A stretch of DNA of 64,000 bases from Siphonodentalium dalli (Eukaryota; Mollusca; Scaphopoda; Gadilida; Siphonodentaliidae). Below the pieces are notes generated by a model, which was not told where the DNA came from, searched no databases, and saw nothing but the letters and a program-made list of their open reading frames with translations. The stretch lies in the NCBI GenBank assembly GCA_032622095.1, contig CP136063.1:35378106-35442105 (forward strand), read 5' to 3'. Positions within the stretch are counted from its first letter, which is position 1, and each line of letters begins with the position of its first letter. Position numbers and translations under genes: made by a program. This document shows, in pieces, positions 1,426-46,220 of this stretch.

Positions 1426-1466
1426 ACCTACAGATATCATGGGGGGATGGCAAATAAGAAATCGAC

Positions 1467-10402: not shown

Positions 10403-12215
10403 TAGTTTGAACATTTGGTGGCACAAGCTGTCGCTATATGGCCACATAATCATCATTTGTACCCGCCTTACTGAAAACCCGGACCAGTTGACCGTCGGTT
10501 GACCACCTACAGATATCATGGGGGGATGGCAAATAAGAAATCGACAAATTTTGAAGGAAATTTAGTATAGTTTGAACATTTAGTGGCACAAGCTGTCGCT
10601 ATATGGCCACATAATCACCATTTGTACCCGCCTTACTGAAAACCCGGACCAGTTGACCGTCGGTTGACCACCCACAGATATCCTGGGGGGGGTGGCAAAT
10701 AAGAAATCGACAAATTTTGAAGGAAATTTCGTATAGTTTGAACATTTAGTGGCACAAGCTGTCGCTATATGGCCACATAATCATCATTTGTACCCGCCTT
10801 ACTGAAAACCCGGACCAGTTGACCGTCGGTTGACCACCCACAGATATCCTGGGGGGATGGCAAATAAGGAATCGACAAATTTTGAAGGAAATTTCGTATA
10901 GTTTGAACATTTAGTGGCACAAGCTGTCGCTATATGGCACATAATCATCATTTGTACCCGCCTTACTGAAAACCCGGACCAGTTGACCGTCGGTTGACCA
11001 CCTACAGATATCATGGGGGGATGGCAAATAAGAAATCGACAAATTTTGAAGGAAATTTCGTATAGTTTGAACATTTAGTGGCACAAGCTGTCGCTATATG
11101 GCCACATAATCATCATTTGTACCCGCCTTACTGAAAACCCGGACCAGTTGACCGTCGGTTGACCACCCACAGATATCCTGGGGGGATGGCAAATAAGGAA
11201 TCGACAAATTTTGAAGGAAATTTCGTATAGTTTGAACATTTAGTGGCACAAGCTGTCGCTATATGGCCACATAATCATCATTTGTACCCGCCTTACTGAA
11301 AACCCGGACCAGTTGACCGTCGGTTGACCACCTACAGATATCATGGGGGGATGGCAAATAAGAAATCGACAAATTTTGAAGGAAATTTCGTATAGTTTGA
11401 ACATTTAGTGGCACAAGCTGTCGCTATATGGCCACATAATCATCATTTGTACCCGCCTTACTGAAAACCCGGACCAGTTGACCGTCGGTTGACCACCTAC
11501 AGATATCATGGGGGATGGCAAATAAGAAATCAACAAATTTTGAAGAAAATTTCGTATAGTTTGAACATTTAGTGGCACAAGCTGTCGCTATATGGCCACA
11601 TACTCATCATTTGTACCAGCCTTACTGAAAACCCGGACCAGTTGACCGTCGGTTGACCACCTACAGATATCATGGGGGGATGGCAAATAAGAAATCGACA
11701 AATTTTGAAGGAAATTTCATATAGTTTGAACATTTAGTGGCACAAGCTGTCGCTATATGGCCACATAATCACCATTTGTACCCGCCTTACAGAAAACCCG
11801 GACCAGTTGACCGTCGGTTGACCACCCACAGATATCCTGGGGGGATGGCAAATAAGAAATCGACAAATTTTGAAGGAAATTTCGTATAGTTTGAACATTT
11901 AGTGGCACAAGCTGTCGCTATATGGCCACATACTCATCATTTGTACCCGCCTTACTGAAAACCCGGACAGTTGACCGTCGGTTGACCACCCACAGATATC
12001 CTGGGAGGATGGCAAATAAGAAATCGACAAATTTTGAAGGAAATTTCGTATAGTTTGAGCATTTAGTGGCACAAGCTGTCGCTATATGGCCACATAATCA
12101 TCATTTGTACCCGCCTTACTGAAAACCCGGACCAGTTGACCGTCGGTTGACCACCTACAGATATCATGGGGGGATGGCAAATAAGAAATCGACAAATTTT
12201 GAAGAAAATTTCGTA
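10403..12215 (+). repeat. 11-mer HOR, unit 1 (1,813 bp)
   Basis: Order: 1 tttggtgg A ttagta; 2 caccatt B long G run (here eight G then tgg); 3 B aaggaatc; 4 tggcacat A, 164 bp; 5 B aaggaatc; 6 A; 7 A five G, aaatcaac, gaagaaaa; 8 catactc gtaccagcc A ttcata; 9 caccatt ttacag B; 10 catactc ggacagttg B gggagg; 11 tttgagc A. It is preceded by a cgaaaaatttt monomer, like unit 3 and unlike units 2 and 4. Confidence 0.88.
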
Positions 12216-14029
12216 TAGTTTGAACATTTGGTGGCACAAGCTGTCGCTATATGGCCACATAATCATCATTTGTACCCGCCTTACTGAAAACCCGGACCAG
12301 TTGACCGTCGGTTGACCACCTACAGATATCATGGGGGGATGGCAAATAAGAAATCGACAAATTTTGAAGGAAATTTAGTATAGTTTGAACATTTAGTGGC
12401 ACAAGCTGTCGCTATATGGCCACATAATCACCATTTGTACCCGCCTTACTGAAAACCCGGACCAGTTGACCGTCGGTTGACCACCCACAGATATCCTGGG
12501 GGGGATGGCAAATAAGAAATCGACAAATTTTGAAGGAAATTTCGTATAGTTTGAACATTTAGTGGCACAAGCTGTCGCTATATGGCCACATAATCATCAT
12601 TTGTACCCGCCTTACTGAAAACCCGGACCAGTTGACCGTCGGTTGACCACCCACAGATATCCTGGGGGGATGGCAAATAAGGAATCGACAAATTTTGAAG
12701 GAAATTTCGTATAGTTTGAACATTTAGTGGCACAAGCTGTCGCTATATGGCACATAATCATCATTTGTACCCGCCTTACTGAAAACCCGGACCAGTTGAC
12801 CGTCGGTTGACCACCTACAGATATCATGGGGGGATGGCAAATAAGAAATCGACAAATTTTGAAGGAAATTTCGTATAGTTTGAACATTTAGTGGCACAAG
12901 CTGTCGCTATATGGCCACATAATCATCATTTGTACCCGCCTTACTGAAAACCCGGACCAGTTGACCGTCGGTTGACCACCCACAGATATCCTGGGGGGAT
13001 GGCAAATAAGGAATCGACAAATTTTGAAGGAAATTTCGTATAGTTTGAACATTTAGTGGCACAAGCTGTCGCTATATGGCCACATAATCATCATTTGTAC
13101 CCGCCTTACTGAAAACCCGGACCAGTTGACCGTCGGTTGACCACCTACAGATATCATGGGGGGATGGCAAATAAGAAATCGACAAATTTTGAAGGAAATT
13201 TCGTATAGTTTGAACATTTAGTGGCACAAGCTGTCGCTATATGGCCACATAATCATCATTTGTACCCGCCTTACTGAAAACCCAGACCAGTTGACCGTCG
13301 GTTGACCACCTACAGATATCATGGGGGATGGCAAATAAGAAATCAACAAATTTTGAAGAAAATTTCGTATAGTTTGAACATTTAGTGGCACAAGCTGTCG
13401 CTATATGGCCACATACTCATCATTTGTGCCAGCCTTACTGAAAACCCGGACCAGTTGACCGTCGGTTGACCACCTACAGATATCATGGGGGGATGGCAAA
13501 TAAGAAATCGACAAATTTTGAAGGAAATTTCATATAGTTTGAACATTTAGTGGCACAAGCTGTCGCTATATGGCCACATAATCACCATTTGTACCCGCCT
13601 TACAGAAAACCCGGACCAGTTGACCGTCGGTTGACCACCTACAGATATCATGGGGGGATGGCAAATAAGAAATCGACAAATTTTGAAGGAAATTTCGTAT
13701 AGTTTGAACATTTAGTGGCACAAGCTGTCGCTATATAGCCACATAATCATCATTTGTACCCGCCTTACTGAAAACCCGGACCAGTTGACCGTCGGTTGAC
13801 CACCTACAGATATCATGGGGGGATGGCAAATAAGAAATCGACAAATTTTGAAGGAAATTTCGTATAGTTTGAACATTTAGTGGCACAAGCTGTCGCTATA
13901 TGGCCACATAATCATCATTTGTACCCGCCTTACTGAAAACCCGGACCAGTTGACCGTCGGTTGACCACCTACAGATATCATGGGGGGATGGCAAATAAGA
14001 AATCGAAAAATTTTGAAGAAAATTTCGTA
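12216..14029 (+). repeat. 11-mer HOR, unit 2 (1,814 bp), last three monomers replaced
   Basis: Monomers 1-8 follow the unit order. It has two private changes shared only with unit 4 and its long-range copy: cccagacc at 13281 and gtgccagcc at 13426. Monomer 9 is class A rather than B, and monomers 10-11 are a tatagcc copy and a cgaaaaatttt copy in place of ggacagttg and tttgagc. The switch within monomer 9 is a likely exchange point. Confidence 0.85.
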
Positions 14030-15843
14030 TAGTTTGAACATTTGGTGGCACAAGCTGTCGCTATATGGCCACATAATCATCATTTGTACCCGCCTTACTG
14101 AAAACCCGGACCAGTTGACCGTCGGTTGACCACCTACAGATATCATGGGGGGATGGCAAATAAGAAATCGACAAATTTTGAAGGAAATTTAGTATAGTTT
14201 GAACATTTAGTGGCACAAGCTGTCGCTATATGGCCACATAATCACCATTTGTACCCGCCTTACTGAAAACCCGGACCAGTTGACCGTCGGTTGACCACCC
14301 ACAGATATCCTGAGGGGGGATGGCAAATAAGAAATCGACAAATTTTGAAGGAAATTTCGTATAGTTTGAACATTTAGTGGCACAAGCTGTCGCTATATGG
14401 CCACATAATCATCATTTGTACCCGCCTTACTGAAAACCCGGACCAGTTGACCGTCGGTTGACCACCCACAGATATCCTGGGGGGATGGCAAATAAGGAAT
14501 CGACAAATTTTGAAGGAAATTTCGTATAGTTTGAACATTTAGTGGCACAAGCTGTCGCTATATGGCACATAATCATCATTTGTACCCGCCTTACTGAAAA
14601 CCCGGACCAGTTGACCGTCGGTTGACCACCTACAGATATCATGGGGGGATGGCAAATAAGAAATCGACAAATTTTGAAGGAAATTTCGTATAGTTTGAAC
14701 ATTTAGTGGCACAAGCTGTCGCTATATGGCCACATAATCATCATTTGTACCCGCCTTACTGAAAACCCGGACCAGTTGACCGTCGGTTGACCACCCACAG
14801 ATATCCTGGGGGGATGGCAAATAAGGAATCGACAAATTTTGAAGGAAATTTCGTATAGTTTGAACATTTAGTGGCACAAGCTGTCGCTATATGGCCACAT
14901 AATCATCATTTGTACCCGCCTTACTGAAAACCCGGACCAGTTGACCGTCGGTTGACCACCTACAGATATCATGGGGGGATGGCAAATAAGAAATCGACAA
15001 ATTTTGAAGGAAATTTCGTATAGTTTGAACATTTAGTGGCACAAGCTGTCGCTATATGGCCACATAATCATCATTTGTACCCGCCTTACTGAAAACCCGG
15101 ACCAGTTGACCGTCGGTTGACCACCTACAGATATCATGGGGGATGGCAAATAAGAAATCAACAAATTTTGAAGAAAATTTCGTATAGTTTGAACATTTAG
15201 TGGCACAAGCTGTCGCTATATGGCCACATACTCATCATTTGTACCAGCCTTACTGAAAACCCGGACCAGTTGACCGTCGGTTGACCACCTACAGATATCA
15301 TGGGGGAATGGCAAATAAGAAATCGACAAATTTTGAAGGAAATTTCATATAGTTTGAACATTTAGTGGCACAAGCTGTCGCTATATGGCCACATAATCAC
15401 CATTTGTACCCGCCTTACAGAAAACCCGGACCAGTTGACCGTCGGTTGACCACCCACAGATATCCTGGGGGGATGGCAAATAAGAAATCGACAAATTTTG
15501 AAGGAAATTTCGTATAGTTTGAACATTTAGTGGCACAAGCTGTCGCTATATGGCCACATACTCATCATTTGTACCCGCCTTACTGAAAACCCGGACAGTT
15601 GACCGTCGGTTGACCACCCACAGATATCCTGGGAGGATGGCAAATAAGAAATCGACAAATTTTGAAGGAAATTTCGTATAGTTTGAGCATTTAGTGGCAC
15701 AAGCTGTCGCTATATGGCCACATAATCATCATTTGTACCCGCCTTACTGAAAACCCGGACCAGTTGACCGTCGGTTGACCACCTACAGATATCATGGGGG
15801 GATGGCAAATAAGAAATCGACAAATTTTGAAGAAAATTTCGTA
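14030..15843 (+). repeat. 11-mer HOR, unit 3 (1,814 bp)
   Basis: Same order as unit 1, with gtaccagcc in monomer 8 and an intact ggacagttg/tttgagc ending (tttgagc monomer at 15679). A private interruption, cctgagggggg, occurs in monomer 2 near 14310, and monomer 8 has gggggaatgg near 15302. It pairs with unit 1 in the alternating 22-mer pattern. Confidence 0.85.
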
Positions 15844-17656
15844 TAGTTTGAACATTTGGTGGCACAAGCTGTCGCTATATGGCCACATAATCATCATTTG
15901 TACCCGCCTTACTGAAAACCCGGACCAGTTGACCGTCGGTTGACCACCTACAGATATCATGGGGGGATGGCAAATAAGAAATCGACAAATTTTGAAGGAA
16001 ATTTAGTATAGTTTGAACATTTAGTGGCACAAGCTGTCGCTATATGGCCACATAATCACCATTTGTACCCGCCTTACTGAAAACCCGGACCAGTTGACCG
16101 TCGGTTGACCACCCACATATATCCTGGGGGGGATGGCAAATAAGAAATCGACAAATTTTGAAGGAAATTTCGTATAGTTTGAACATTTAGTGGCACAAGC
16201 TGTCGCTATATGGCCACATAATCATCATTTGTACCCGCCTTACTGAAAACCCGGACCAGTTGACCGTCGGTTGACCACCCACAGATATCCTGGGGGGATG
16301 GCAAATAAGGAATCGACAAATTTTGAAGGAAATTTCGTATAGTTTGAACATTTAGTGGCACAAGCTGTCGCTATATGGCACATAATCATCATTTGTACCC
16401 GCCTTACTGAAAACCCGGACCAGTTGACCGTCGGTTGACCACCTACAGATATCATGGGGGGATGGCAAATAAGAAATCGACAAATTTTGAAGGAAATTTC
16501 GTATAGTTTGAACATTTAGTGGCACAAGCTGTCGCTATATGGCCACATAATCATCATTTGTACCCGCCTTACTGAAAACCCGGACCAGTTGACCGTCGGT
16601 TGACCACCCACAGATATCCTGGGGGGATTGCAAATAAGGAATCGACAAATTTTGAAGGAAATTTCGTATAGTTTGAACATTTAGTGGCACAAGCTCTCGC
16701 TATATGGCCACATAATCATCATTTGTACCCGCCTTACTGAAAACCCGGACCAGTTGACCGTCGGTTGACCACCTACAGATATCATGGGGGGATGGCAAAT
16801 AAGAAATCGACAAATTTTGAAGGAAATTTCGTATAGTTTGAACATTTAGTGGCACAAGCTGTCGCTATATGGCCACATAATCATCATTTGTACCCGCCTT
16901 ACTGAAAACCCAGACCAGTTGACCGTCGGTTGACCACCTACAGATATCATGGGGGATGGCAAATAAGAAATCAACAAATTTTGAAGAAAATTTCGTATAG
17001 TTTGAACATTTAGTGGCACAAGCTGTCGCTATATGGCCACATACTCATCATTTGTGCCAGCCTTACTGAAAACCCGGACCAGTTGACCGTCGGTTGACCA
17101 CCTACAGATATCATGGGGGGATGGCAAATAAGAAATCGACAAATTTTGAAGGAAATTTCATATAGTTTGAACATTTAGTGGCACAAGCTGTCGCTATATG
17201 GCCACATAATCACCATTTGTACCCGCCTTACAGAAAACCCGGACCAGTTGACCGTCGGTTGACCACCCACAGATATCCTGGGGGGATGGCAAATAAGAAA
17301 TCGACAAATTTTGAAGGAAATTTCGTATAGTTTGAACATTTAGTGGCACAAGCTGTCGCTATATGGCCACATACTCATCATTTGTACCCGCCTTACTGAA
17401 AACCCGGACAGTTGACCGTCGGTTGACCACCCACAGATATCCTGGGAGGATGGCAAATAAGAAATCGACAAATTTTGAAGGAAATTTCGTATAGTTTGAG
17501 CATTTAGTGGCACAAGCTGTCGCTATATGGCCACATAATCATCATTTGTACCTGCCTTACTGAAAACCCGGACCAGTTGACCGTCGGTTGACCACCTACA
17601 TATATCATGGGGGGATGGCAAATAAGAAATCGACAAATTTTGAAGGACATTTCGTA
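15844..17656 (+). repeat. 11-mer HOR, unit 4 (1,813 bp)
   Basis: Shares cccagacc (16909) and gtgccagcc (17054) with unit 2, each offset by 3,628 bp. Private changes include ggggggattgc near 16621. It ends with tttgagc (17492) carrying acctgcc and ggacattt, and then runs into a caatctg monomer in place of another tttggtgg. It is also the start of the 59-mer: the same unit recurs at 25571. Confidence 0.85.
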
Positions 17657-20294
17657 TAGTTTGAACATTTAGTGGCACAATCTGTCGCTATATGGCCACA
17701 TAATCACCATTTGTACCCGCCTTACTGAAAACCCGGACCAGTTGACCGTCGGTTGACCACCCACAGATATCCTGGGGGGATGGCAAATAAGAAATCGACA
17801 AATTTTGAAAGAAATTTCGTATAGTTTGAACATTTAGTGGCACAAGCTGTCGCTATATGGCCACATAATGATCATTTGTACCCGCCTTACTGCAAACCCG
17901 GACCAGTTGACCGTCGGTTGACCACCTACATATATCATGGGGGGATGGCAAATAAGAAATCGACAAATTTTGAAGGAAATTTCGTATAGTTTGAACATTT
18001 AGTGGCACAAGCTGTCGCTATATGGCCACATAATCACCAGTTGTACCCGCCTTACTGAAAACCCGGACCAGTTGACCGTCGGTTGACCACCCACAGATAT
18101 CCTGGGGGATGGCAAATAAGAAATCGACAAATTTTGAAGGAAATTTCGTATAGTTTGAACATTTAGTGGCACAAGCTGTCGCTATATGGCCACATAATCA
18201 TCATTTGTACCCGCCTTACTGAAAACCCGGACCAGTTGACCGTCGGTTGACCACCCACAGATATCCTGGGGGGATGGCAAATAAGAAATCGACAAATTTT
18301 GAAGGAAATTTCGTATAGTTTGAACATTTAGTGGCACAAGCTGTCGCTATATGGCCACATAATCATCATTTGTACCCGCCTTACTGAAAACCCGGACCAG
18401 TTGACCGTCGGTTGACCACCCACAGATATCCTGGGGGAATGGCAAATAAGGAATCGACAAATTTTGAAGGAAATTTCGTATAGTTTGAACATTTAGTGGC
18501 ACAAGCTGTCGCTATATGGCACATAATCATCATTTGTACCCGCCTTACTGAAAACCCGGACCAGTTGACCGTCGGTTGACCACCTACAGATATCATGGGG
18601 GGATGGCAAATAAGAAATCGACAAATTTTGAAGAAAATGTCGTATAGTTTGAACATTTAGTGGCACAAGCTGTCGCTATATAGCCACATAATCATCATTT
18701 GTACCCGCCTTACTGAAAACCCGGACCAGTTGACCGTCGGTTGACCACCTACAGATATCATGGGGGGATGGCAAATAAGAAATCGACAAATTTTGAAGGA
18801 AATTTCGTATAGTTTGAACATTTAGTGGCACAAGCTGTCGCTATATAGCCACATAATCATCATTTGTACCCGCCTTACTGAAAACCCGGACCAGTTGACC
18901 GTCGGTTGACCACCCACAGATATCCTGGTGGATGGCAAATAAGAAATCGACAAATTTTGAAGGAAATTTCGTATAGTTTGAACATTTAGTGGCACAAGCT
19001 GTCGCTATATGGCCACATAATCATCATTTGTACCCGCCTTACTGAAAACCCGGACCAGTTGACCGTCGGTTGACCACCCACAGATATCCTGGGGGGGATG
19101 GCAAATAAGAAATCGACAAATTTTGAAGGAAATTTCGTATAGTTTGAACATTTAGTGGCACAAGCTGTCGCTATATGGCCACATAATCATCATTTGTACC
19201 CGCCTTACTGAAAACCCGGACCAGTTGACCGTCGGTTGACCACCTACAGATATCATGGGGGGATGGCAAATAAGAAATCGACAAATTTTGAAGGAAATTT
19301 CGTATAGTTTGAACATTTAGTGGCACAAGCTGTCGCTATATGGCCACATAATCATCATTTGTACCCGCCTTACTGAAAACCCGGACCAGTAGACCGTCGG
19401 TTGACCACCTACAGATATCATGGGGGGATGGCAAATAAGAAATCGAAAAATTTTGAAGAAAATTTCGTATAGTTTGAACATTTGGTGGCACAAGCTGTCG
19501 CTATATGGCCACATAATCATCATTTGTACCCGCCTTACTGAAAACCCGGACCAGTTGACCGTCGGTTGACCACCCACAGATATCCTGGGGGGGATGGCAA
19601 ATAAGAAATCGACAAATTTTGAAGGAAATTTCGTATAGTTTGAACATTTAGTGGCACAAGCTGTCGCTATATGGCCACATAATCATCATTTGTACCCGCC
19701 TTACTGAAAACCCGGACCAGTTGACCGTCGGTTGACCACCCACAGATATCCTGGGGGGATGGCAAATAAGGAATCGACAAATTTTGAAGGAAATTTCGTA
19801 TAGTTTGAACATTTAGTGGCACAAGCTGTCGCTATATGGCCACATAATCATCATTTGTACCCGCCTTACTGAAAACCCGGACCAGTTGACCGTCGGTTGA
19901 CCACCTACAGATATCATGGGGGGATGGCAAATAAGAAATCGAAAAATTTTGAAGGAAATTTCGTATAGTTTGAACATTTAGTGGCACAAGCTGTCGCTAT
20001 ATGGCCACATAATCATCATTTGTACCCTCCTTACTGAAAACCCGGACCAGTTGACCGTCGGTTGACCACCCACAGATATCCTGGGGGGATGGCAAATAAG
20101 GAATCGACAAATTTTGAAGGAAATTTCGTATAGTTTGAACATTTAGTGGCACAAGCTGTCGCTATATGGCACATAATCATCATTTGTACCCGCCTTACTG
20201 AAAACCCGGACCAGTTGACCGTCGGTTGACCACCTACAGATATCATGGGGGGATGGCAAATAAGAAATCGACAAATTTTTAAGAAAATTTCGTA

Positions 20295-20459
20295 TAGTTT
20301 GAACATTTAGTGGCACAAGCTGTCGCTATATAGCCACATAATCATCATTTGTACCCGCCTTACTGAAAACCCGGACCAGTTGACCGTCGGTTGACCACCT
20401 ACAGATATCATGGGGGGATGGCAAATAAGGAATCGACAAATTTTGAAGGAAATTTCGTA
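20295..20459 (+). repeat. Chimeric monomer marking loss of one repeat
   Basis: This monomer begins as tatagcc class A and keeps class A at 106 and 116, but ends with aaggaatc, which is otherwise typical of class B. In the sister copy the corresponding place holds two monomers: tatagcc class A with aagaaatc at 30022-30186, then class B with aaggaatc at 30187-30351. The left half of the first joined to the right half of the second, with the switch between positions 116 and 136, gives exactly the monomer seen here. It explains the 59 versus 60 count. Confidence 0.85.
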
Positions 20460-23400
20460 TAGTTTGAACATTTAGTGGCACAAGCTGTCGCTATATGGCC
20501 ACATAATCATCATTTGTACCCGCCTTACTGAAAACCCGGACCAGTTGACCGTCGGTTGACCACCTACAGATATCATGGGGGGATGGCAAATAAGAAATCG
20601 ACAAATTTTGAAGGAAATTTCGTATAGTTTGAACATTTAGTGGCACAAGCTGTCGCTATATGGCCACATAATCATCATTTGTACCCGCCTTACTGAAAAC
20701 CCGGACCAGTTGACCGTCGGTTGACCACCCACAGATATCCTGGGGGGATGGCAAATAAGGAATCGACAAATTTTGAAGGAAATTTCGTATAGTTTGAACA
20801 TTTAGTGGCACAAGCTGTCGCTATATGGCCACATAATCATCATTTGTACCCGCCTTACTGAAAACCCGGACCAGTTGACCGTCGGTTGACCACCTACAGA
20901 TATCATGGGGGGATGGCAAATAAGAAATCGACAAATTTTGAAGGAAATTTCGTATAGTTTGAACATTTAGTGGCACAAGCTGTCGCTATATGGCCACATA
21001 ATCATCATTTGTACCCGCCTTACTGAAAACCCGGACCAGTTGACCGTCGGTTGACCACCTACAGATATCATGGGGGGATGGCAAATAAGAAATCGAAAAA
21101 TTTTGAAGAAAATTTCGTATAGTTTGAACATTTGGTGGCACAAGCTGTCGCTATATGGCCACATAATCATCATTTGTACCCGCCTTACTGAAAACCCGGA
21201 CCAGTTGACCGTCGGTTGACCACCTACAGATATCATGGGGGGATGGCAAATAAGAAATCGACAAATTTTGAAGGAAATTTAGTATAGTTTGAACATTTAG
21301 TGGCACAAGCTGTCGCTATATGGCACATAATCATCATTTGTACCCGCCTTACTGAAAACCCGGACCAGTTGACCGTCGGTTGACCACCCACAGATATCCT
21401 GGGGGGGATGGCAAATAAGAAATCGACAAATTTTGAAGAAAATTTCGTATAGTTTGAACATTTAGTGGCACAAGCTGTCGCTATATGGCCACATAATCAT
21501 CATTTGTACCCGCCTTACTGAAAACCCGGACCAGTTGACCGTCGGTTGACCACCCACAGATATCCTGGGGGGATGGCAAATAAGGAATCGACAAATTTTG
21601 AAGGAAATTTCGTATAGTTTGAACATTTAGTGGCACAAGCTGTCGCTATATGGCACATAATCATCATTTGTACCCGCCTTACTGAAAACCCGGACCAGTT
21701 GACCGTCGGTTGACCACCTACAGATATCATGGGGGGATGGCAAATAAGAAATCGACAAATTTTGAAGAAAATTTCGTATAGTTTGAACATTTAGTGGCAC
21801 AAGCTGTCGCTATATAGCCACATAATCATCATTTGTACCCGCCTTACTGAAAACCCGGACCAGTTGACCGTCGGTTGACCACCTACAGATATCATGGGGG
21901 GATGGCAAATAAGAAATCGACAAATTTTGAAGGAAATTTCGTATAGTTTGAACATTTAGTGGCACAAGCTGTCGCTATATGGCCACATAATCATCATTTG
22001 TACCCGCCTTACTGAAAACCCGGACCAGTTGACCGTCGGTTGACCACCCACAGATATCCTGGGGGGATGGCAAATAAGGAATCGACAAATTTTGAAGGAA
22101 ATTTCGTATAGTTTGAACATTTAGTGGCACAAGCTGTCGCTATATGGCCACATAATCATCATTTGTACCCGCCTTACTGAAAACCCGGACCAGTTGACCG
22201 TCGGTTGACCACCTACAGATATCATGGGGGGATGGCAAATAAGAAATCAACAAATTTTGAAGGAAATTTCGTATAGTTTGAACATTTAGTGGCACAAGCT
22301 GTCGCTATATGGCCACATAATCATCATTTGTACCCGCCTTACTGAAAACCCGGACCAGTTGACCGTCGGTTGACCACCTACAGATATCATGGGGGATGGC
22401 AAATAAGAAATCAACAAATTTTGAAGAAAATTTCGTATAGTTTGAACATTTAGTGGCACAAGCTGTCGCTATATGGCCACATACTCATCATTTGTACCAG
22501 CCTTACTGAAAACCCGGACCAGTTGACCGTCGGTTGACCACCTACAGATATCATGGGGGGATGGCAAATAAGAAATCGACAAATTTTGAAGGAAATTTCA
22601 TATAGTTTGAACATTTAGTGGCACAAGCTGTCGCTATATGGCCACATAATCACCATTTGTACCCGCCTTACTGAAAACCCGGACCAGTTGACCGTCGGTT
22701 GACCACCCACAGATATCCTGGGGGGATGGCAAATAAGAAATCGACAAATTTTGAAGGAAATTTCGTATAGTTTGAACATTTAGTGGCACAAGCTGTCGCT
22801 ATATGGCCACATACTCATCATTTGTACCCGCCTTACTGAAAACCCGGACAGTTGACCGTCGGTTGACCACCCACAGATATCCTGGGAGGATGGCAAATAA
22901 GAAATCGACAAATTTTGAAGGAAATTTCGTATAGTTTGAGCATTTAGTGGCACAAGCTGTCGCTATATGGCCACATAATCATCATTTGTACCCGTCTTAC
23001 TGAAAACCCGGACCAGTTGACCGTCGGTTGACCACCTACAGATATCATGGGGGGATGGCAAATAAGAAATCGACAAATTTTGAAGGACATTTCGTATAGT
23101 TTGAACATTTAGTGGCACAATCTGTCGCTATATGGCCACATAATCACCATTTGTACCCGCCTTACTGAAAACCCGGACCAGTTGACCGTCGGTTGACCAC
23201 CCACAGATATCCTGGGGGGATGGCAAATAAGAAATCGACAAATTTTGAAGGAAATTTCGTATAGTTTGAACATTTAGTGGCACAAGCTGTCGCTATATGG
23301 CCACATAATGATCATTTGTACCCGCCTTACTGCAAACCCAGACCAGTTGACCGTCGGTTGACCACCTACATATATCATGGGGGGATGGCAAATAAGAAAT

Positions 23401-25241
23401 CGACAAATTTTGAAGGAAATTTCGTATAGTTTGAACATTTAGTGGCACAAGCTGTCGCTATATGGCCACATAATCACCATTTGTACCCGCCTTACTGAAA
23501 ACCCGGACCAGTTGACCGTCGGTTGACCACCCACAGATATCCTGGGGGATGGCAAATAAGAAATCGACAAATTTTGAAGGAAATTTCGTATAGTTTGAAC
23601 ATTTAGTGGCACAAGCTGTCGCTATATGGCCACATAATCATCATTTGTACCCGCCTTACTGAAAACCCGGACCAGTTGACCGTCGGTTGACCACCCACAG
23701 ATATCCTGGGGGGGATGGCAAATAAGAAATCGACAAATTTTGAAGGAAATTTCGTATAGTTTGAACATTTAGTGGCACAAGCTGTCGCTATATGGCCACA
23801 TAATCATCATTTGTACCCGCCTTACTGAAAACCCGGACCAGTTGACCGTCGGTTGACCACCCACAGATATCCTGGGGGAATGGCAAATAAGGAATCGACA
23901 AATTTTGAAGGAAATTTCGTATAGTTTGAACATTTAGTGGCACAAGCTGTCGCTATATGGCACATAATCATCATTTGTACCCGCCTTACTGAAAACCCGG
24001 ACCAGTTGACCGTCGGTTGACCACCTACAGATATCATGGGGGGATGGCAAATAAGAAATCGACAAATTTTGAAGAAAATTTCGTATAGTTTGAACATTTA
24101 GTGGCACAAGCTGTCGCTATATAGCCACATAATCATCATTTGTACCCGCCTTACTGAAAACCCGGACCAGTTGACCGTCGGTTGACCACCTACAGATATC
24201 ATGGGGGGATGGCAAATAAGAAATCGACAAATTTTGAAGGAAATTTCGTAAAGTTTGAACATTTAGTGGCACAAGCTGTCGCTATATAGCCACATAATCA
24301 TCATTTGTACCCGCCTTACTGAAAACCCGGACCAGTTGACCGTCGGTTGACCACCCACAGATATCCTGGGGGATGGCAAATAAGAAATCGACAAATTTTG
24401 AAGGAAATTTCGTATAGTTTGAACATTTAGTGGCACAAGCTGTCGCTATATGGCCACATAATCATCATTTGTACCCGCCTTACTGAAAACCCGGACCAGT
24501 TGACCGTCGGTTGACCACCCACAGATATCCTGGGGGGGATGGCAAATAAGAAATCGACAAATTTTGAAGGAAATTTCGTATAGTTTGAACATTTAGTGGC
24601 ACAAGCTGTCGCTATATGGCCACATAATCATCATTTGTACCCGCCTTACTGAAAACCCGGACCAGTTGACCGTCGGTTGACCACCTACAGATATCATGGG
24701 GGGATGGCAAATAAGAAATCGACAAATTTTGAAGGAAATTTCGTATAGTTTGAACATTTAGTGGCACAAGCTGTCGCTATATGGCCACATAATCATCATT
24801 TGTACCCGCCTTACTGAAAACCCGGACCAGTTGACCGTCGGTTGACCACCTACAGATATCATGGGGGGATGGCAAATAAGAAATCGAAAAATTTTGAAGA
24901 AAATTTCGTATAGTTTGAACATTTGGTGGCACAAGCTGTCGCTATATGGCCACATAATCATCATTTGTACCCGCCTTACTGATAACCCGGACCAGTTGAC
25001 CGTCGGTTGACCACCTACAGATATCATGGGGGGATGGCAAATAAGAAATCGACAAATTTTGAAGGAAATTTAGTATAGTTTGAACATTTAGTGGCACAAG
25101 CTGTCGCTATATGGCCACATAATCACCATTTGTACCCGCCTTACTGAAAACCCGGACCAGTTGACCGTCGGTTGACCACCCACAGATATCCTGGGGGGGA
25201 TGGCAAATAAGAAATCGACAAATTTTGAAGGAAATTTCGTA

Positions 25242-28200
25242 TAGTTTGAACATTTAGTGGCACAAGCTGTCGCTATATGGCCACATACTCATCATTTGTA
25301 CCCGCCTTACTGAAAACCCGGACAGTTGACCGTCGGTTGACCACCCACAGATATCCTGGGAGGATGGCAAATAAGAAATCGACAAATTTTGAAGGAAATT
25401 TCGTATAGTTTGAGCATTTAGTGGCACAAGCTGTCGCTATATGGCCACATAATCATCATTTGTACCCGCCTTACTGAAAACCCGGACCAGTTGACCGTCG
25501 GTTGACCACCTACAGATATCATGGGGGGATGGCAAATAAGAAATCGACAAATTTTGAAGAAAATTTCGTATAGTTTGAACATTTGGTGGCACAAGCTGTC
25601 GCTATATGGCCACATAATCATCATTTGTACCCGCCTTACTGAAAACCCGGACCAGTTGACCGTCGGTTGACCACCTACAGATATCATGGGGGATGGCAAA
25701 TAAGAAATCGACAAATTTTGAAGGAAATTTAGTATAGTTTGAACATTTAGTGGCACAAGCTGTCGCTATATGGCCACATAATCACCATTTGTACCCGCCT
25801 TACTGAAAACCCGGACCAGTTGACCGTCGGTTGACCACCCACAGATATCCTGGGGGGGATGGCAAATAAGAAATCGACAAATTTTGAAGGAAATTTCGTA
25901 TAGTTTGAACATTTAGTGGCACAAGCTGTCGCTATATGGCCACATAATCATCATTTGTACCCGCCTTACTGAAAACCCGGACCAGTTGACCGTCGGTTGA
26001 CCACCCACAGATATCCTGGGGGGATGGCAAATAAGGAATCGACAAATTTTGAAGGAAATTTCGTATAGTTTGAACATTTAGTGGCACAAGCTGTCGCTAT
26101 ATGGCACATAATCATCATTTGTACCCGCCTTACTGAAAACCCGGACCAGTTGACCGTCGGTTGACCACCTACAGATATCATGGGGGGATGGCAAATAAGA
26201 AATCGACAAATTTTGAAGGAAATTTCGTATAGTTTGAACATTTAGTGGCACAAGCTGTCGCTATATGGCCACATAATCATCATTTGTACCCGCCTTACTG
26301 AAAACCCGGACCAGTTGACCGTCGGTTGACCACCCACAGATATCCTGGGGGGATTGCAAATAAGGAATCGACAAATTTTGAAGGAAATTTCGTATAGTTT
26401 GAACATTTAGTGGCACAAGCTGTCGCTATATGGCCACATAATCATCATTTGTACCCGCCTTACTGAAAACCCGGACCAGTTGACCGTCGGTTGACCACCT
26501 ACAGATATCATGGGGGGATGGCAAATAAGAAATCGACAAATTTTGAAGGAAATTTCGTATAGTTTGAACATTTAGTGGCACAAGCTGTCGCTATATGGCC
26601 ACATAATCATCATTTGTACCCGCCTTACTGAAAACCCAGACCAGTTGACCGTCGGTTGACCACCTACAGATATCATGGGGGATGGCAAATAAGAAATCAA
26701 CAAATTTTGAAGAAAATTTCGTATAGTTTGAACATTTAGTGGCACAAGCTGTCGCTATATGGCCACATACTCATCATTTGTGCCAGCCTTACTGAAAACC
26801 CGGACCAGTTGACCGTCGGTTGACCACCTACAGATATCATGGGGGGATGGCAAATAAGAAATCGACAAATTTTGAAGGAAATTTCATATAGTTTGAACAT
26901 TTAGTGGCACAAGCTGTCGCTATATGGCCACATAATCACCATTTGTACCCGCCTTACAGAAAACCCGGACCAGTTGACCGTCGGTTGACCACCCACAGAT
27001 ATCCTGGGGGGATGGCAAATAAGAAATCGACAAATTTTGAAGGAAATTTCGTATAGTTTGAACATTTAGTGGCACAAGCTGTCGCTATATGGCCACATAC
27101 TCATCATTTGTACCCGCCTTACTGAAAACCCGGACAGTTGACCGTCGGTTAACCACCCACAGATATCCTGGGAGGATGGCAAATAAGAAATCGACAAATT
27201 TTGAAGGAAATTTCGTATAGTTTGAGCATTTAGTGGCACAAGCTGTCGCTATATGGCCACATAATCATCATTTGTACCTGCCTTACTGAAAACCCGGATC
27301 AGTTGACCGTCGGTTGACCACCTACAGATATCATGGGGGGATGGCAAATAAGAAATCGACAAATTTTGAAGGACATTTCGTATAGTTTGAACATTTAGTG
27401 GCACAATCTGTCGCTATATGGCCACATAATCACCATTTGTACCCGCCTTACTGAAAACCCGGACCAGTTGACCGTCGGTTGACCACCCACAGATATCCTG
27501 GGGGGATGGCAAATAAGAAATCGACAAATTTTGAAAGAAATTTCGTATAGTTTGAACATTTAGTGGCACAAGCTGTCGCTATATGGCCACATAATGATCA
27601 TTTGTACCCGCCTTACTGCAAACCCGGACCAGTTGACCGTCGGTTGACCACCTACATATATCATGGGGGGATGGCAAATAAGAAATCGACAAATTTTGAA
27701 GGAAATTTCGTATAGTTTGAACATTTAGTGGCACAAGCTGTCGCTATATGGCCACATAATCACCATTTGTACCCGCCTTACTGAAAACCCGGACCAGTTG
27801 ACCGTCGGTTGACCACCCACAGATATCCTGGGGGATGGCAAATAAGAAATCGACAAATTTTGAAGGAAATTTCGTATAGTTTGAACATTTAGTGGCACAA
27901 GCTGTCGCTATATGGCCACATAATCATCATTTGTACCCGCCTTACTGAAAACCCGGACCAGTTGACCGTCGGTTGACCACCCACAGATATCCTGGGGGGA
28001 TGGCAAATAAGAAATCGACAAATTTTGAAGGAAATTTCGTATAGTTTGAACATTTAGTGGCACAAGCTGTCGCTATATGGCCACATAATCATCATTTGTA
28101 CCCGCCTTACTGAAAACCCGGACCAGTTGACCGTCGGTTGACCACCCACAGATATCCTGGGGGAATGGCAAATAAGGAATCGACAAATTTTGAAGGAAAT

Positions 28201-31200
28201 TTCGTATAGTTTGAACATTTAGTGGCACAAGCTGTCGCTATATGGCACATAATCATCATTTGTACCCGCCTTACTGAAAACCCGGACCAGTTGACCGTCG
28301 GTTGACCACCTACAGATATCATGGGGGGATGGCAAATAAGAAATCGACAAATTTTGAAGAAAATGTCGTATAGTTTGAACATTTAGTGGCACAAGCTGTC
28401 GCTATATAGCCACATAATCATCATTTGTACCCGCCTTACTGAAAACCCGGACCAGTTGACCGTCGGTTGACCACCTACAGATATCATGGGGGGATGGCAA
28501 ATAAGAAATCGACAAATTTTGAAGGAAATTTCGTATAGTTTGAACATTTAGTGGCACAAGCTGTCGCTATATAGCCACATAATCATCATTTGTACCCGCC
28601 TTACTGAAATCCCGGACCAGTTGACCGTCGGTTGACCACCCACAGATATCCTGGGGGATGGCAAATAAGAAATCGACAAATTTTGAAGGAAATTTCGTAT
28701 AGTTTGAACATTTAGTGGCACAAGCTGTCGCTATATGGCCACATAATCATCATTTGTACCCGCCTTACTGAAAACCCGGACCAGTTGACCGTCGGTTGAC
28801 CACCCACAGATATCCTGGGGGGGATGGCAAATAAGAAATCGACAAATTTTGAAGGAAATTTCGTATAGTTTGAACATTTAGTGGCACAAGCTGTCGCTAT
28901 ATGGCCACATAATCATCATTTGTACCCGCCTTACTGAAAACCCGGACCAGTTGACCGTCGGTTGACCACCTACAGATATCATGGGGGGATGGCAAATAAG
29001 AAATCGACAAATTTTGAAGGAAATTTCGTATAGTTTGAACATTTAGTGGCACAAGCTGTCGCTATATGGCCACATAATCATCATTTGTACCCGCCTTACT
29101 GAAAACCCGGACCAGTTGACCGTCGGTTGACCACCTACAGATATCATGGGGGGATGGCAAATAAGAAATCGAAAAATTTTGAAGAAAATTTCGTATAGTT
29201 TGAACATTTGGTGGCACAAGCTGTCGCTATATGGCCACATAATCATCATTTGTACCCGCCTTACTGAAAACCCGGACCAGTTGACCGTCGGTTGACCACC
29301 CACAGATATCCTGGGGGGGATGGCAAATAAGAAATCGACAAATTTTGAAGGAAATTTCGTATAGTTTGAACATTTAGTGGCACAAGCTGTCGCTATATGG
29401 CCACATAATCATCATTTGTACCCGCCTTACTGAAAACCCGGACCAGTTGACCGTCGGTTGACCACCCACAGATATCCTGGGGGGATGGCAAATAAGGAAT
29501 CGACAAATTTTGAAGGAAATTTCGTATAGTTTGAACATTTAGTGGCACAAGCTGTCGCTATAATGGCCACATAATCATCATTTGTACCCGCCTTACTGAA
29601 AACCCGGACCAGTTGACCGTCGGTTGACCACCTACAGATATCATGGGGGGATGGCAAATAAGAAATTGACAAATTTTGAAGGAAATTTCGTATAGTTTGA
29701 ACATTTAGTGGCACAAGCTGTCGCTATATGGCCACATAATCATCATTTGTACCCTCCTTACTGAAAACCCGGACCAGTTGACCGTCGGTTGACCACCCAC
29801 AGATATCCTGGGGGGATGGCAAATAAGGAATCGACAAATTTTGAAGGAAATTTCGTATAGTTTGAACATTTAGTGGCACAAGCTGTCGCTATATGGCACA
29901 TAATCATCATTTGTACCCGCCTTACTGAAAACCCGGACCAGTTGACCGTCGGTTGACCACCTACAGATATCATGGGGGGATGGCAAATAAGAAATCGACA
30001 AATTTTTAAGAAAATTTCGTATAGTTTGAACATTTAGTGGCACAAGCTGTCGCTATATAGCCACATAATCATCATTTGTACCCGCCTTACTGAAAACCCG
30101 GACCAGTTGACCGTCGGTTGACCACCTACAGATATCATGGGGGGATGGCAAATAAGAAATCGACAAATTTTGAAGGAAATTTCGTATAGTTTGAACATTT
30201 AGTGGCACAAGCTGTCGCTATATGGCCACGTAATCATCATTTGTACCCGCCTTACTGAAAACCCGGACCAGTTGACCGTCGGTTGACCACCCACAGATAT
30301 CCTGGGGGGATGGCAAATAAGGAATCGACAAATTTTGAAGGAAATTTCGTATAGTTTGAACATTTAGTGGCACAAGCTGTCGCTATATGGCCACATAATC
30401 ATCATTTGTACCCGCCTTACTGAAAACCCGGACCAGTTGACCGTCGGTTGACCACCTACAGATATCATGGGGGGATGGCAAATAAGAAATCGACAAATTT
30501 TGAAGGAAATTTCGTATAGTTTGAACATTTAGTGGCACAAGCTGTCGCTATATGGCCACATAATCATCATTTGTACCCGCCTTACTGAAAACCCGGACCA
30601 GTTGACCGTCGGTTGACCACCCACAGATATCCTGGGGGGATGGCAAATAAGGAATCGACAAATTTTGAAGGAAATTTCGTATAGTTTGAACATTTAGTGG
30701 CACAAGCTGTCGCTATATGGCCACATAATCATCATTTGTACCCGCCTTACTGAAAACCCGGACCAGTTGACCGTCGGTTGACCACCTACAGATATCATGG
30801 GGGATGGCAAATAAGAAATCGACAAATTTTGAAGGAAATTTCGTATAGTTTGAACATTTAGTGGCACAAGCTGTCGCTATATGGCCACATAATCATCATT
30901 TGTACCCGCCTTACTGAAAACCCGGACCAGTTGACCGTCGGTTGACCACCTACAGATATCATGGGGGGATGGCAAATAAGAAATCGAAAAAATTTGAAGA
31001 AAATTTCGTATAGTTTGAACATTTGGTGGCACAAGCTGTCGCTATATGGCCACATAATCATCATTTGTACCCGCCTTACTGAAAACCCGGACCAGTTGAC
31101 CGTCGGTTGACCACCTACAGATATCATGGGGGGATGGCAAATAAGAAATCGACAAATTTTGAAGGAAATTTAGTATAGTTTGAACATTTAGTGGCACAAG

Positions 31201-34200
31201 CTGTCGCTATATGGCCACATAATCACCATTTGTACCCGCCTTACTGAAAACCCGGACCAGTTGACCGTCGGTTGACCACCCACAGATATCCTGGGGGGGA
31301 TGGCAAATAAGAAATCGACAAATTTTGAAGGAAATTTCGTATAGTTTGAACATTTAGTGGCACAAGCTGTCGCTATATGGCCACATAATCATCATTTGTA
31401 CCCGCCTTACTGAAAACCCGGACCAGTTGACCGTCGGTTGACCACCCACAGATATCCTGGGGGGATGGCAAATAAGGAATCGACAAATTTTGAAGGAAAT
31501 TTCGTATAGTTTGAACATTTAGTGGCACAAGCTGTCGCTATATGGCACATAATCATCATTTGTACCCGCCTTACTGAAAACCCGGACCAGTTGACCGTCG
31601 GTTGACCACCTACAGATATCATGGGGGGATGGCAAATAAGAAATCGACAAATTTTGAAGAAAATTTCGTATAGTTTGAACATTTAGTGGCACAAGCTGTC
31701 GCTATATAGCCACATAATCATCATTTGTACCCGCCTTACTGAAAACCCGGACCAGTTGACCGTCGGTTGACCACCTACAGATATCATGGGGGGATGGCAA
31801 ATAAGAAATCGACAAATTTTGAAGGAAATTTCGTATAGTTTGAACATTTAGTGGCACAAGCTGTCGCTATATGGCCACATAATCATCATTTGTACCCGCC
31901 TTACTGAAAACCCGGACCAGTTGACCGTCGGTTGACCACCCACAGATATCCTGGGGGGATGGCAAATAAGGAATCGACAAATTTTGAAGGAAATTTCGTA
32001 TAGTTTGAACATTTAGTGGCACAAGCTGTCGCTATATGGCCACATAATCATCATTTGTACCCGCCTTACTGAAAACCCGGACCAGTTGACCGTCGGTTGA
32101 CCACCTACAGATATCATGGGGGGATGGCAAATAAGAAATCGACAAATTTTGAAGGAAATTTCGTATAGTTTGAACATTTAGTGGCACAAGCTGTCGCTAT
32201 ATGGCCACATAATCATCATTTGTACCCGCCTTACTGAAAACCCGGACCAGTTGACCGTCGGTTGACCACCTACAGATATCATGGGGGATGGCAAATAAGA
32301 AATCAACAAATTTTGAAGAAAATTTCGTATAGTTTGAACATTTAGTGGCACAAGCTGTCGCTATATGGCCACATACTCATCATTTGTACCAGCCTTACTG
32401 AAAACCCGGACCAGTTGACCGTCGGTTGACCACCTACAGATATCATGGGGGGATGGCAAATAAGAAATCGACAAATTTTGAAGGAAATTTCATATAGTTT
32501 GAACATTTAGTGGCACAAGCTGTCGCTATATGGCCACATAATCACCATTTGTACCCGCCTTACTGAAAACCCGGACCAGTTGACCGTCGGTTGACCACCC
32601 ACAGATATCCTGGGGGGATGGCAAATAAGAAATCGACAAATTTTGAAGGAAATTTCGTATAGTTTGAACATTTAGTGGCACAAGCTGTCGCTATATGGCC
32701 ACATACTCATCATTTGTACCCGCCTTACTGAAAACCCGGACAGTTGACCGTCGGTTGACCACCCACAGATATCCTGGGAGGATGGCAAATAAGAAATCGA
32801 CAAATTTTGAAGGAAATTTCGTATAGTTTGAGCATTTAGTGGCACAAGCTGTCGCTATATGGCCACATAATCATCATTTGTACCCGTCTTACTGAAAACC
32901 CGGACCAGTTGACCGTCGGTTGACCACCTACAGATATCAAAGGGGATGGCAAATAAGAAATCGACAAATTTTGAAGGACATTTCGTATAGTTTGAACATT
33001 TAGTGGCACAATCTGTCGCTATATGGCCACATAATCACCATTTGTACCCGCCTTACTGAAAACCCGGACCAGTTGACCGTCGGTTGACCACACACAGATA
33101 TCCTGGGGGGATGGCAAATAAGAAATCGACAAATTTTGAAGGAAATTTCGTATAGTTTGAACATTTAGTGGCACAAGCTGTCGCTATATGGCCACATAAT
33201 GATCATTTGTACCCGCCTTACTGCAAACCCAGACCAGTTGACCGTCGGTTGACCACCTACATATATCATGGGGGGATGGCAAATAAGAAATCGACAAATT
33301 TTGAAGGAAATTTCGTATAGTTTGAACATTTAGTGGCACAAGCTGTCGCTATATGGCCACATAATCACCATTTGTACCCGCCTTACTGAAAACCCGGACC
33401 AGTTGACCGTCGGTTGACCACCCACAGATATCCTGGGGGATGGCAAATAAGAAATCGACAAATTTTGAAGGAAATTTCGTATAGTTTGAACATTTAGTGG
33501 CACAAGCTGTCGCTATATGGCCACATAATCATCATTTGTACCCGCCTTACTGAAAACCCGGACCAGTTGACCGTCGGTTGACCACCCACAGATATCCTGG
33601 GGGGGATGGCAAATAAGAAATCGACAAATTTTGAAGGAAATTTCGTATAATTTGAACATTTAGTGGCACAAGCTGTCGCTATATGGCCACATAATCATCA
33701 TTTGTACCCGCCTTACTGAAAACCCGGACCAGTTGACCGTCGGTTGACCACCCACAGATATCCTGGGGGAATGGCAAATAAGGAATCGACAAATTTTGAA
33801 GGAAATTTCGTATAGTTTGAACATTTAGTGGCACAAGCTGTCGCTATATGGCACATAATCATCATTTGTACCCGCCTTACTGAAAACCCGGACCAGTTGA
33901 CCGTCGGTTGACCACCTACAGATATCATGGGGGGATGGCAAATAAGAAATCGACAAATTTTGAAGAAAATTTCGTATAGTTTGAACATTTAGTGGCACAA
34001 GCTGTCGCTATATAGCCACATAATCATCATTTGTACCCGCCTTACTGAAAACCCGGACCAGTTGACCGTCGGCTGACCACCTACAGATATCATGGGGGGA
34101 TGGCAAATAAGAAATCGACAAATTTTGAAGGAAATTTCGTATAGTTTGAACATTTAGTGGCACAAGCTGTCGCTATATAGCCACATAATCATCATTTGTA

Positions 34201-35132
34201 CCCGCCTTACTGAAAACCCGGACCAGTTGACCGTCGGTTGACCACCCACAGATATCCTGGGGGATGGCAAATAAGAAATCGACAAATTTTGAAGGAAATT
34301 TCGTATAGTTTGAACATTTAGTGGCACAAGCTGTCGCTATATGGCCACATAATCATCATTTGTACCCGCCTTACTGAAAACCCGGACCAGTTGACCGTCG
34401 GTTGACCACCCACAGATATCCTGGGGGGGATGGCAAATAAGAAATCGACAAATTTTGAAGGAAATTTCGTATAGTTTGAACATTTAGTGGCACAAGCTGT
34501 CGCTATATGGCCACATAATCATCATTTGTACCCGCCTTACTGAAAACCCGGACCAGTTGACCGTCGGTTGACCACCTACAGATATCATGGGGGGATGGCA
34601 AATAAGAAATCGACAAATTTTGAAGGAAATTTCGTATAGTTTGAACATTTAGTGGCACAAGCTGTCGCTATATGGCCACATAATCATCATTTGTACCCGC
34701 CTTACTGAAAACCCGGACCAGTTGACCGTCGGTTGACCACCTACAGATATCATGGGGGGATGGCAAATAAGAAATCGAAAAATTTTGAAGAAAATTTCGT
34801 ATAGTTTGAACATTTGGTGGCACAAGCTGTCGCTATATGGCCACATAATCATCATTTGTACCCGCCTTACTGATAACCCGGACCAGTTGACCGTCGGTTG
34901 ACCACCTACAGATATCATGGGGGGATGGCAAATAAGAAATCGACAAATTTTGAAGGAAATTTAGTATAGTTTGAACATTTAGTGGCACAAGCTGTCGCTA
35001 TATGGCCACATAATCACCATTTGTACCCGCCTTACTGAAAACCCGGACCAGTTGACCGTCGGTTGACCACCCACAGATATCCTGGGGGGGATGGCAAATA
35101 AGAAATCGACAAATTTTGAAGGAAATTTCGTA
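25242..35132 (+). repeat. 60-mer super-repeat, copy 2 (9,891 bp)
   Basis: Second tandem copy of the preceding block, longer by one monomer. It matches copy 1 in monomer order from the catactc/ggacagttg monomer at 25242 to the caccatt seven-G monomer ending at 35132. Differences are few single-base changes: gttaacc near 27149, ggccacgtaatc near 30229, aaagggg near 32939 where copy 1 has the six-G run, ggctgacc near 34071, and gctataatgg near 29559 (a 1-bp insertion). Beyond 35132 the order departs from that following 25241. Confidence 0.9.
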
Positions 35133-36945
35133 TAGTTTGAACATTTAGTGGCACAAGCTGTCGCTATATGGCCACATAATCATCATTTGTACCCGCCTTA
35201 CTGAAAACCCGGACCAGTTGACCGTCGGTTGACCACCCACAGATATCCTGGGGGGATGGCAAATAAGGAATCGACAAATTTTGAAGGAAATTTCGTATAG
35301 TTTGAACATTTAGTGGCACAAGCTGTCGCTATATGGCCACATAATCATCATTTGTACCCGCCTTACTGAAAACCCGGACCAGTTGACCGTCGGTTGACCA
35401 CCTACAGATATCATGGGGGGATGGCAAATAAGAAATTGACAAATTTTGAAGGAAATTTCGTATAGTTTGAACATTTAGTGGCACAAGCTGTCGCTATATG
35501 GCCACATAATCATCATTTGTACCCGCCTTACTGAAAACCCGGACCAGTTGACCGTCGGTTGACCACCCACAGATATCCTGGGGGGATGGCAAATAAGGAA
35601 TCGACAAATTTTGAAGGAAATTTCGTATAGTTTGAACATTTAGTGGCACAAGCTGTCGCTATATGGCACATAATCATCATTTGTACCCGCCTTACTGAAA
35701 ACCCGGACCAGTTGACCGTCGGTTGACCACCTACAGATATCATGGGGGGATGGCAAATAAGAAATCGACAAATTTTTAAGACAATTTCGTATAGTTTGAA
35801 CATTTAGTGGCACAAGCTGTCGCTATATAGCCACATAATCATCATTTGTACCCGCCTTACTGAAAACCCGGACCAGTTGACCGTCGGTTGACCACCTACA
35901 GATATCATGGGGGGATGGCAAATAAGAAATCGACAAATTTTGAAGGAAATTTCGTATAGTTTGAACATTTAGTGGCACAAGCTGTCGCTATATGGCCACA
36001 TAATCATCATTTGTACCCGCCTTACTGAAAACCCGGACCAGTTGACCGTCGGTTGACCACCCACAGATATCCTGGGGGGATGGCAAATAAGGAATCGACA
36101 AATTTTGAAGGAAATTTCGTATAGTTTGAACATTTAGTGGCACAAGCTGTCGCTATATGGCCACATAATCATCATTTGTACCCGCCTTACTGAAAACCCG
36201 GACCAGTTGACCGTCGGTTGACCACCTACAGATATCATGGGGGGATGGCAAATAAGAAATCGACAAATTTTGAAGGAAATTTCGTATAGTTTGAACATTT
36301 AGTAGCACAAGCTGTCGCTATATGGCCACATAATCATCATTTGTACCCGCCTTACTGAAAACCCGGACCAGTTGACCGTCGGTTGACCACCTACAGATAT
36401 CATGGGGGGATGGCAAATAAGAAATCGACAAATTTTGAAAAAAAATTCGTATAGTTTGAACATTTAGTGGCACAAGTTGTCGCTATATGGCCACATAATC
36501 ATCATTTGTACCCGCCTTACTGAAAACCCGGACCAGTTGACCGTCGGTTGACCACCTACAGATATCATGGGGGGATGGCAAATAAGAAATCGACAAATTT
36601 TGAAGGAAATTTCGTATAGTTTGAACATTTAGTGGCACAAGCTGTCGCTATATGGCCACATAATCACCATTTGTACCCGCCTTACTGAAAACCCGGACCA
36701 GTTGACCGTCGGTTGACCACCCACAGATATCCTGGGGGGATGGCAAATAAGAAATCGACAAATTTTGAAGGAAATTTCGTATAGTTTGAACATTTAGTGG
36801 CACAAGCTGTCGCTATATGGCCACATACTCATCATTTGTACCCGCCTTACTGAAAACCCGGACAGTTGACCGTCGGTTGACCACCCACAGATATCCTGGG
36901 AGGATGGCAAATAAGGAATCGACAAATTTTGAAGGAAATTTCGTA
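35133..36945 (+). repeat. Transition segment into the right domain (11 monomers)
   Basis: The order is B aaggaatc, A aaattgac, B aaggaatc, tggcacat with tttttaagacaatt, tatagcc, B aaggaatc, A, agtagcac with an A-rich tract near 36440, aagttgtc, caccatt B, catactc ggacagttg gggagg. Here aagttgtc and agtagcac first appear, while cataatgatc, gtaccagcc/ttcata and cgaaaaatttt monomers are no longer seen. This is the visible boundary between two satellite neighbourhoods. Confidence 0.75.
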
Positions 36946-46206: not shown

Positions 46207-46220
46207 TATATGGCCATATA
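46207..46220. other. Perfect 14-bp palindrome tatatggccatata
   Basis: In nearly all monomers this position reads tatatggccacata. A single C-to-T change here completes a perfect 14-bp inverted repeat. It occurs in one monomer only, so it is probably a chance mutation. Confidence 0.6.

What the first reader, a model, noticed from the sequence alone, without database searches (positions are those of the whole stretch)
15515..35132. Very long HOR: tandem 59- and 60-monomer copies (9.7 and 9.9 kb)
Two adjacent blocks share rare single-base marks at a fixed offset of 9,727 bp, then 9,891 bp after one monomer difference. This is much larger than the 4- to 19-monomer units common in well-known satellites. 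It implies a recent unequal exchange or amplification that moved almost 10 kb at once, on top of older 11-mer structure.
Basis: seen in the sequence. Interest (0 to 1): 0.7.

Follow-up and report, generated by a model that had tools for sequence, protein, structure and literature searches.

The report
Large tandem duplication inside satellite array
A stretch of about 60 repeat units (nearly 10,000 bases) inside a long run of repetitive DNA was copied once, side by side, most likely by a misaligned exchange between repeats; the copy is clear in the sequence, but this is an ordinary way for such DNA to change.

Summary
The whole window is one head-to-tail array of a 165-bp satellite (388.1 copies). 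Blocks at 15,515-25,241 (59 monomers) and 25,242-35,132 (60 monomers) are adjacent copies of one unit: 21 substitutions in 9,724 aligned bases (0.216%), five 1-bp indels and one whole-monomer indel, against 2.48% between random 5-monomer segments. Left edge, junction and right edge share one identical 94-bp tract, as expected if misaligned monomers recombined by homology.

Only two copies are seen, so this is a tandem duplication rather than an HOR array. It is not the youngest event: a 48-monomer (7,913 bp) duplication at 51.6-63.8 kb shows 1 substitution in 4,123 bases. The 11-mer pattern is real but lies mostly left of the blocks. Published primate units of 52-84 monomers and adjacent CentC duplications in maize show that size and mechanism are not new. 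Species, centromere function and assembly correctness could not be tested.

The parts
1..64000 (+). Host array: 165-bp satellite, 388.1 copies, 96% matches, one row covering the whole window; no tRNA and no Rfam match at gathering score. Transposons were not searched for separately
15515..25241 (+). Block A, left copy, 59 monomers (m94-m152); maximal match 15,467-25,287
25242..35132 (+). Block B, right copy, 60 monomers (m153-m212); maximal match 25,194-35,178
25194..25287 (+). Junction tract of 94 bp, identical to 15,467-15,560 (left edge of A) and 35,085-35,178 (right edge of B); the inferred exchange lies inside it
20295..20459 (+). Probable chimeric monomer m123: 5' part like B m182, 3' part like B m183; switch within 20,411-20,429; marks the loss of one monomer from A
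30138..30302 (+). The 165 bp present in B and absent from A
10073..17162 (+). Neighbouring 22-monomer tandem duplication (m61-81 / m83-103), over an 11-mer pattern; overlaps the start of block A and probably predates the 60-mer event
51595..63756 (+). Second large duplication: 51,595-55,843 and 59,508-63,756, offset 7,913 bp (48 monomers), with one 3,196-bp exact match; 1 substitution in 4,123 aligned bases of whole monomers

Best explanation
A 60-monomer (9.89 kb) segment of a 165-bp satellite array was tandemly duplicated once by homologous recombination between monomers misaligned by 60 units (unequal sister-chromatid or homologue exchange, or out-of-register break repair). The exchange fell within a 94-bp identical tract spanning the end of one monomer and the start of the next. 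The two copies then diverged mainly by point changes, and a later short-range recombination between two adjacent monomers removed one monomer from the left copy. Shown: the two in-register copies, their divergence, the shared junction tract and the mosaic marks of m123. Inferred: the recombination route, the order of events, and that no selected function is needed. The duplication is best read as ordinary turnover of a satellite array.
For: Adjacent copies with no spacer, offset a whole number of monomers. 0.216% divergence against 2.48% for 281 random 5-monomer pairs (number kept), with the 21 substitutions spread evenly (KS p 0.97). 13 of 21 substitutions involve a base seen in at most 3 of 388 monomers, 4 on A and 9 on B, as private mutations would give. 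Identical 94-bp tract at left edge, junction and right edge. m123 is unique (1 of 388) and combines an m182-type 5' mark with an m183-type 3' mark; at 7 of the 12 places where the m182 type occurs (m132, 182, 192, 217, 227, 238, 248; m182 itself included, and m132/m192 are copies of each other) the next monomer is the m183 type with at most one difference, which favours deletion in A over insertion in B. A mark found only in m100 and m159 and absent from m78 suggests that the 22-mer duplication came before the 60-mer one. Duplications of other sizes (7, 15, 17, 21, 22, 36, 48 monomers) share the array.
Against: 8 of 21 substitutions involve bases common in the array (minor count 5 to 82 of 388), so some may be gene conversion and the divergence is not a clean clock. 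Two of the five 1-bp indels lie in the monomer's G-run (15,961 and 20,907), where sequencing error is common; a third (23,048) abuts it together with two adjacent substitutions, probably one complex change, so 21 substitutions are fewer than 21 events. Five monomers besides m123 carry both of its marks, so its pattern could also come from conversion or mutation. At 5 of the 12 places the m182 type is followed by something else (2-6 differences from m183). No reads, second haplotype or related species were available.
Confidence: 0.83

Rival explanations
1. Assembly artefact: two haplotypes, or two passes over one region, were placed in tandem, so the A/B differences are allelic differences or errors.
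For: 0.2% divergence is a plausible heterozygosity (inference); the window is pure satellite, where misassembly is common (established knowledge); two of five 1-bp indels are in the G-run and a third abuts it. No reads were available.
Against: No N bases; the only overlap at the join is 94 bp, too short for a normal long-read overlap (inference); the copies differ by a whole monomer and 21 evenly spread substitutions; other nested duplications with graded divergence fit a biological process.
Confidence: 0.1
2. Amplification through an extrachromosomal circle or rolling-circle replication, reinserted next to its source.
For: Gives the same in-register tandem product; satellite circles are known (recalled, from no call).
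Against: Only two copies, while rolling circles tend to give several (recalled). Nothing tested here separates it from unequal exchange.
Confidence: 0.05
3. A true higher-order repeat array with a 59/60-monomer unit, of which only two copies fall in the window.
For: Arrays with units of this size exist in orangutan (59-mer, 8 copies; 58-mer, 67 copies).
Against: The window holds 15.5 kb to the left and 28.9 kb to the right of the pair, and at offsets of 58-61 monomers no run of more than 3 near-identical monomers is found there; no third block appears in the run lists.
Confidence: 0.02

Closest known systems
Adjacent segmental duplications of CentC monomers in maize centromere 10 (PMC4806543; passages, sections 23-25)
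   Same: Tandem duplication of a block of satellite monomers with low divergence between copies, and a separate one-monomer loss through a chimeric monomer formed in a 28-nt identical tract (Mo17 M11').
   Different: The youngest CentC block described there is 10 monomers; the 22.7 kb adjacent duplication there is of retrotransposon sequence with a 5-nt junction match. Here the unit is 60 monomers, the junction tract 94 bp, and the array is uninterrupted satellite.
Orangutan alpha-satellite 59-mer (chr 13, PMC11276891, abstract and section 6) and 58-mer superHOR (chr Y, PMC12428378, abstract only)
   Same: Unit size; low divergence between copies (0.1% and 0.25%) against much larger divergence between monomers.
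   Different: Those are arrays of 8 and 67 copies; monomers within the 59-mer differ by 22.4%. Here there are two copies, and random 5-monomer segments differ by only about 2.5%.
Human 52-mer alpha-satellite HOR, chr 21 (PMC12385485, abstract only)
   Different: A different satellite; its copy number was not read here.

Membership tests
Tandem duplication by misaligned homologous recombination in a satellite array | Two adjacent copies in monomer register | tested here: met
Tandem duplication by misaligned homologous recombination in a satellite array | Identical homology tract shared by left edge, junction and right edge | tested here: met
   94 bp
Tandem duplication by misaligned homologous recombination in a satellite array | Reciprocal product or unduplicated allele in the population | not testable with these tools
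   no genome is held for this window
Higher-order repeat (HOR) array | Same-position monomers between copies far more alike than other monomers of the array | tested here: met
   0.216% against 2.48%
Higher-order repeat (HOR) array | Unit repeated more than twice in tandem (recalled usage; some programs accept two blocks) | tested here: not met
   two copies; flanks at background
Centromeric satellite | Long homogeneous array of near-nucleosome-length monomers | tested here: met
   165 bp, 388.1 copies over the whole 64 kb
Centromeric satellite | Occupied by CENH3/CENP-A | not testable with these tools
   needs ChIP or CUT&RUN
Primate-type alpha satellite | CENP-B box (motif recalled) in a subset of monomers | tested here: not met
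   0 matches on either strand; monomer 165 bp, not 171. Not compared with an alpha-satellite sequence

The most novel reading that the evidence does not exclude
This array turns over mainly by rare long-range duplications of tens of monomers (48 and 60 here, perhaps 109 at the right edge, where the last 638 bp exactly repeat 45,390-46,027), not by steady short-range slippage, so that HOR-like periods are transient by-products of single large exchanges.
Probability: 0.2. Interest if true: 0.4.

Novelty: new member of a known kind. Interest (0 to 1): 0.22.

Why it matters
It is a well-resolved example of how satellite arrays grow: one exchange moved about 10 kb, and its junction, the later mutations and a probable later one-monomer loss can all be read from the sequence. 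With reads from several individuals, such events could give a rate and size spectrum for large exchanges. Alone it agrees with known turnover and does not change the picture.

Tried and rejected
Species: exact patterns of 30 bases in viral contigs and of 34 and 22 bases in genome contigs found nothing; blastn of the first 660 bases found nothing in plasmids or phages; six monomer strings were found in 0 papers of the held library. Searches on '165-bp' led to a passage that mentions 165-bp CentO monomers in rice and to passages on Salicaceae satellites; passages of a survey of candidate centromere repeats held no '165 bp'. No sequence was available to compare, so no species is named.

Coding: 6 ORFs of at least 100 aa, all on the minus strand, four of them 109 aa long; taken as chance open frames in the satellite and not followed further. 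CENP-B box: none. First segmentation by anchor matching found only 300 starts and was replaced. A left-edge check came back false because of the G-run offset; the corrected check was true. A three-copy HOR was rejected. Divergence was measured at base level for the 14 best of the 30 blocks listed (the 11-mer and 22-mer on part of their range); the other 16 were not measured. No date in years is given, because neither species nor mutation rate is known.

Full report
What the window is. Tandem Repeats Finder covers all 64,000 bases with one array: period 165, 388.1 copies, 96% matches. Segmentation gave 388 monomers; 378 of the 387 complete ones are 164-166 bp, and there are 159 distinct aligned forms. 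There are no tRNA and no Rfam matches and no N bases. CpG is hardly depleted (observed/expected 0.89).

Checking the observation. Base-by-base comparison shows long exact matches at offsets 9,726-9,727 and 9,891-9,892 between about 15.5 and 25.3 kb. Aligning the two blocks gives 21 substitutions in 9,724 aligned bases (0.216%, 95% interval 0.134-0.330), five 1-bp indels and one 165-bp indel. Among 300 draws of random 5-monomer segment pairs, 281 lay at least 12 monomers apart and were kept; their mean divergence was 2.48%. The run is not chance: 31 monomers in a row with at most 3 differences, against at most 11 in 100 monomer permutations, and at most 14, 19 and 26 when blocks of 5, 11 or 22 monomers were kept intact (100 shuffles each). 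All 175 of the 175 two-copy 31-mers starting in block A have their partner at the expected offset.

Anatomy. The maximal match is 15,467-25,287 against 25,194-35,178. The 94 bases 25,194-25,287 are identical at the left edge of A, at the junction and at the right edge of B. Outside this tract the copies depart from their neighbours: m93 lacks the extra G of m152 and m212, and m213 lacks the marks of m94 and m153. This is the signature of one exchange between monomers misaligned by the unit length, within 94 bp of identity.

The 59-versus-60 difference. In B, m182 is followed by m183 and then m184; in A, m123 stands in place of m182 and m183. m123 has the 5' mark of m182 (column 54) and the 3' mark of m183 (column 166), but not m183's marks at columns 124 and 134, so the switch lies in a 19-bp identical tract, 20,411-20,429. 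The m182 type occurs at 12 places; at 7 (m182 itself included; m132 and m192 are copies of each other) the next monomer is the m183 type with at most one difference, and at the other 5 it differs by 2-6. I read this as a 60-monomer unit, later shortened in A. Against this, five other monomers of 388 carry both marks of m123, so conversion or mutation together with a clean deletion is not excluded.

After the duplication. The 21 differences are evenly spread (KS p 0.97). Thirteen involve a base present in at most 3 of 388 monomers, four on A and nine on B; eight involve bases with minor counts of 5 to 82. So most look like private mutations and some may be conversion. Two of them (23,049 and 23,050) lie next to a 1-bp indel at the start of the G-run and are probably one complex change. 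Ten are transitions and eleven transversions.

The rest of the array. Self-alignment in monomers lists 30 blocks; I measured the best 14: 48 monomers (m313-337 / m361-385; 1 substitution in 4,123), 22 (6 in 2,966), 21 (3 in 2,635), 17 (6 in 2,307), offsets 36, 15, 26 and 102 at 0.36-0.47%, offset 11 at 0.61%, and short blocks at offsets 39, 41, 81 and 7 at 0.06-0.15% with wide intervals. Offsets 59, 33, 11, 69, 48, 36 and 22 are the most enriched over permutation (z 4.7 to 5.6). The 11-mer layer runs from m63 to m105; 11 is not among the twelve leading offsets within m94-212, although 33 is. A mark present only in m100 and m159 (2 of 388), and absent from the 22-mer partner m78, suggests that the 22-mer duplication came first. 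The 60-mer event is one of a series and not the youngest.

Mechanism. Shown: the copies, the junction tract, the mosaic marks of m123. Inferred: unequal exchange or out-of-register repair. [quoted passage not shown] A circle-reinsertion route would give the same product. An assembly artefact cannot be excluded without reads, but the 94-bp overlap at the join and the graded series of other duplications make it unlikely.

Comparison with the literature. Maize centromere 10 has a 10-monomer adjacent CentC duplication, seven dated duplications, a one-monomer loss through a chimeric monomer, and a 22.7 kb adjacent duplication of retrotransposon sequence (PMC4806543; passages, sections). Orangutan chr 13 has a 59-mer in eight copies, six of them canonical (PMC11276891; abstract, section); orangutan Y has a 58-mer in 67 copies, with a preliminary 84-mer on chr 5 (PMC12428378, abstract); human chr 21 has a 52-mer (PMC12385485, abstract). 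A human study argues that new HORs spread by more than simple unequal crossover (PMC11062924, passages), a caution against my route. I found no paper reporting this array; the searches that bear on that were made, and on long HORs and duplications, of which I saw the listings.

Verdict. A confirmed, well-delimited tandem duplication in a satellite array, of a known kind. Interest is low to moderate.

Noticed in passing
51,595-55,843 and 59,508-63,756: A 48-monomer duplication, offset 7,913 bp, with a 3,196-bp exact match and 1 substitution in 4,123 aligned bases; younger by divergence than the 60-mer pair. The match breaks at 63,756, before the unit is complete.
   Followed up: partly
45,390-46,027 and 63,363-64,000: The last 638 bases of the window occur exactly once elsewhere in it, 17,973 bp (109 monomers) upstream; possible start of a larger duplication cut by the window end, but only about four monomers long.
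   Followed up: partly
e.g. 85-102 in the first monomer: Internal direct repeat GTTGACC, 11 bp apart (GTTGACCGTCGGTTGACC), in the monomer consensus and exact in 375 of 388 monomers; possible protein-binding site or relic.
   Followed up: no
613-622 and 3,585-3,601: The monomer's G-run, six G in the consensus, is expanded to 10 and 17 G at these places, giving monomers of 169 and 176 bp.
   Followed up: no
46,000-64,000: AT skew is 0.071-0.081 here against 0.079-0.096 to the left, and 7-, 14- and 27-monomer offsets lead together with 48 in m300-387: probably a different local mix of monomer variants.
   Followed up: no
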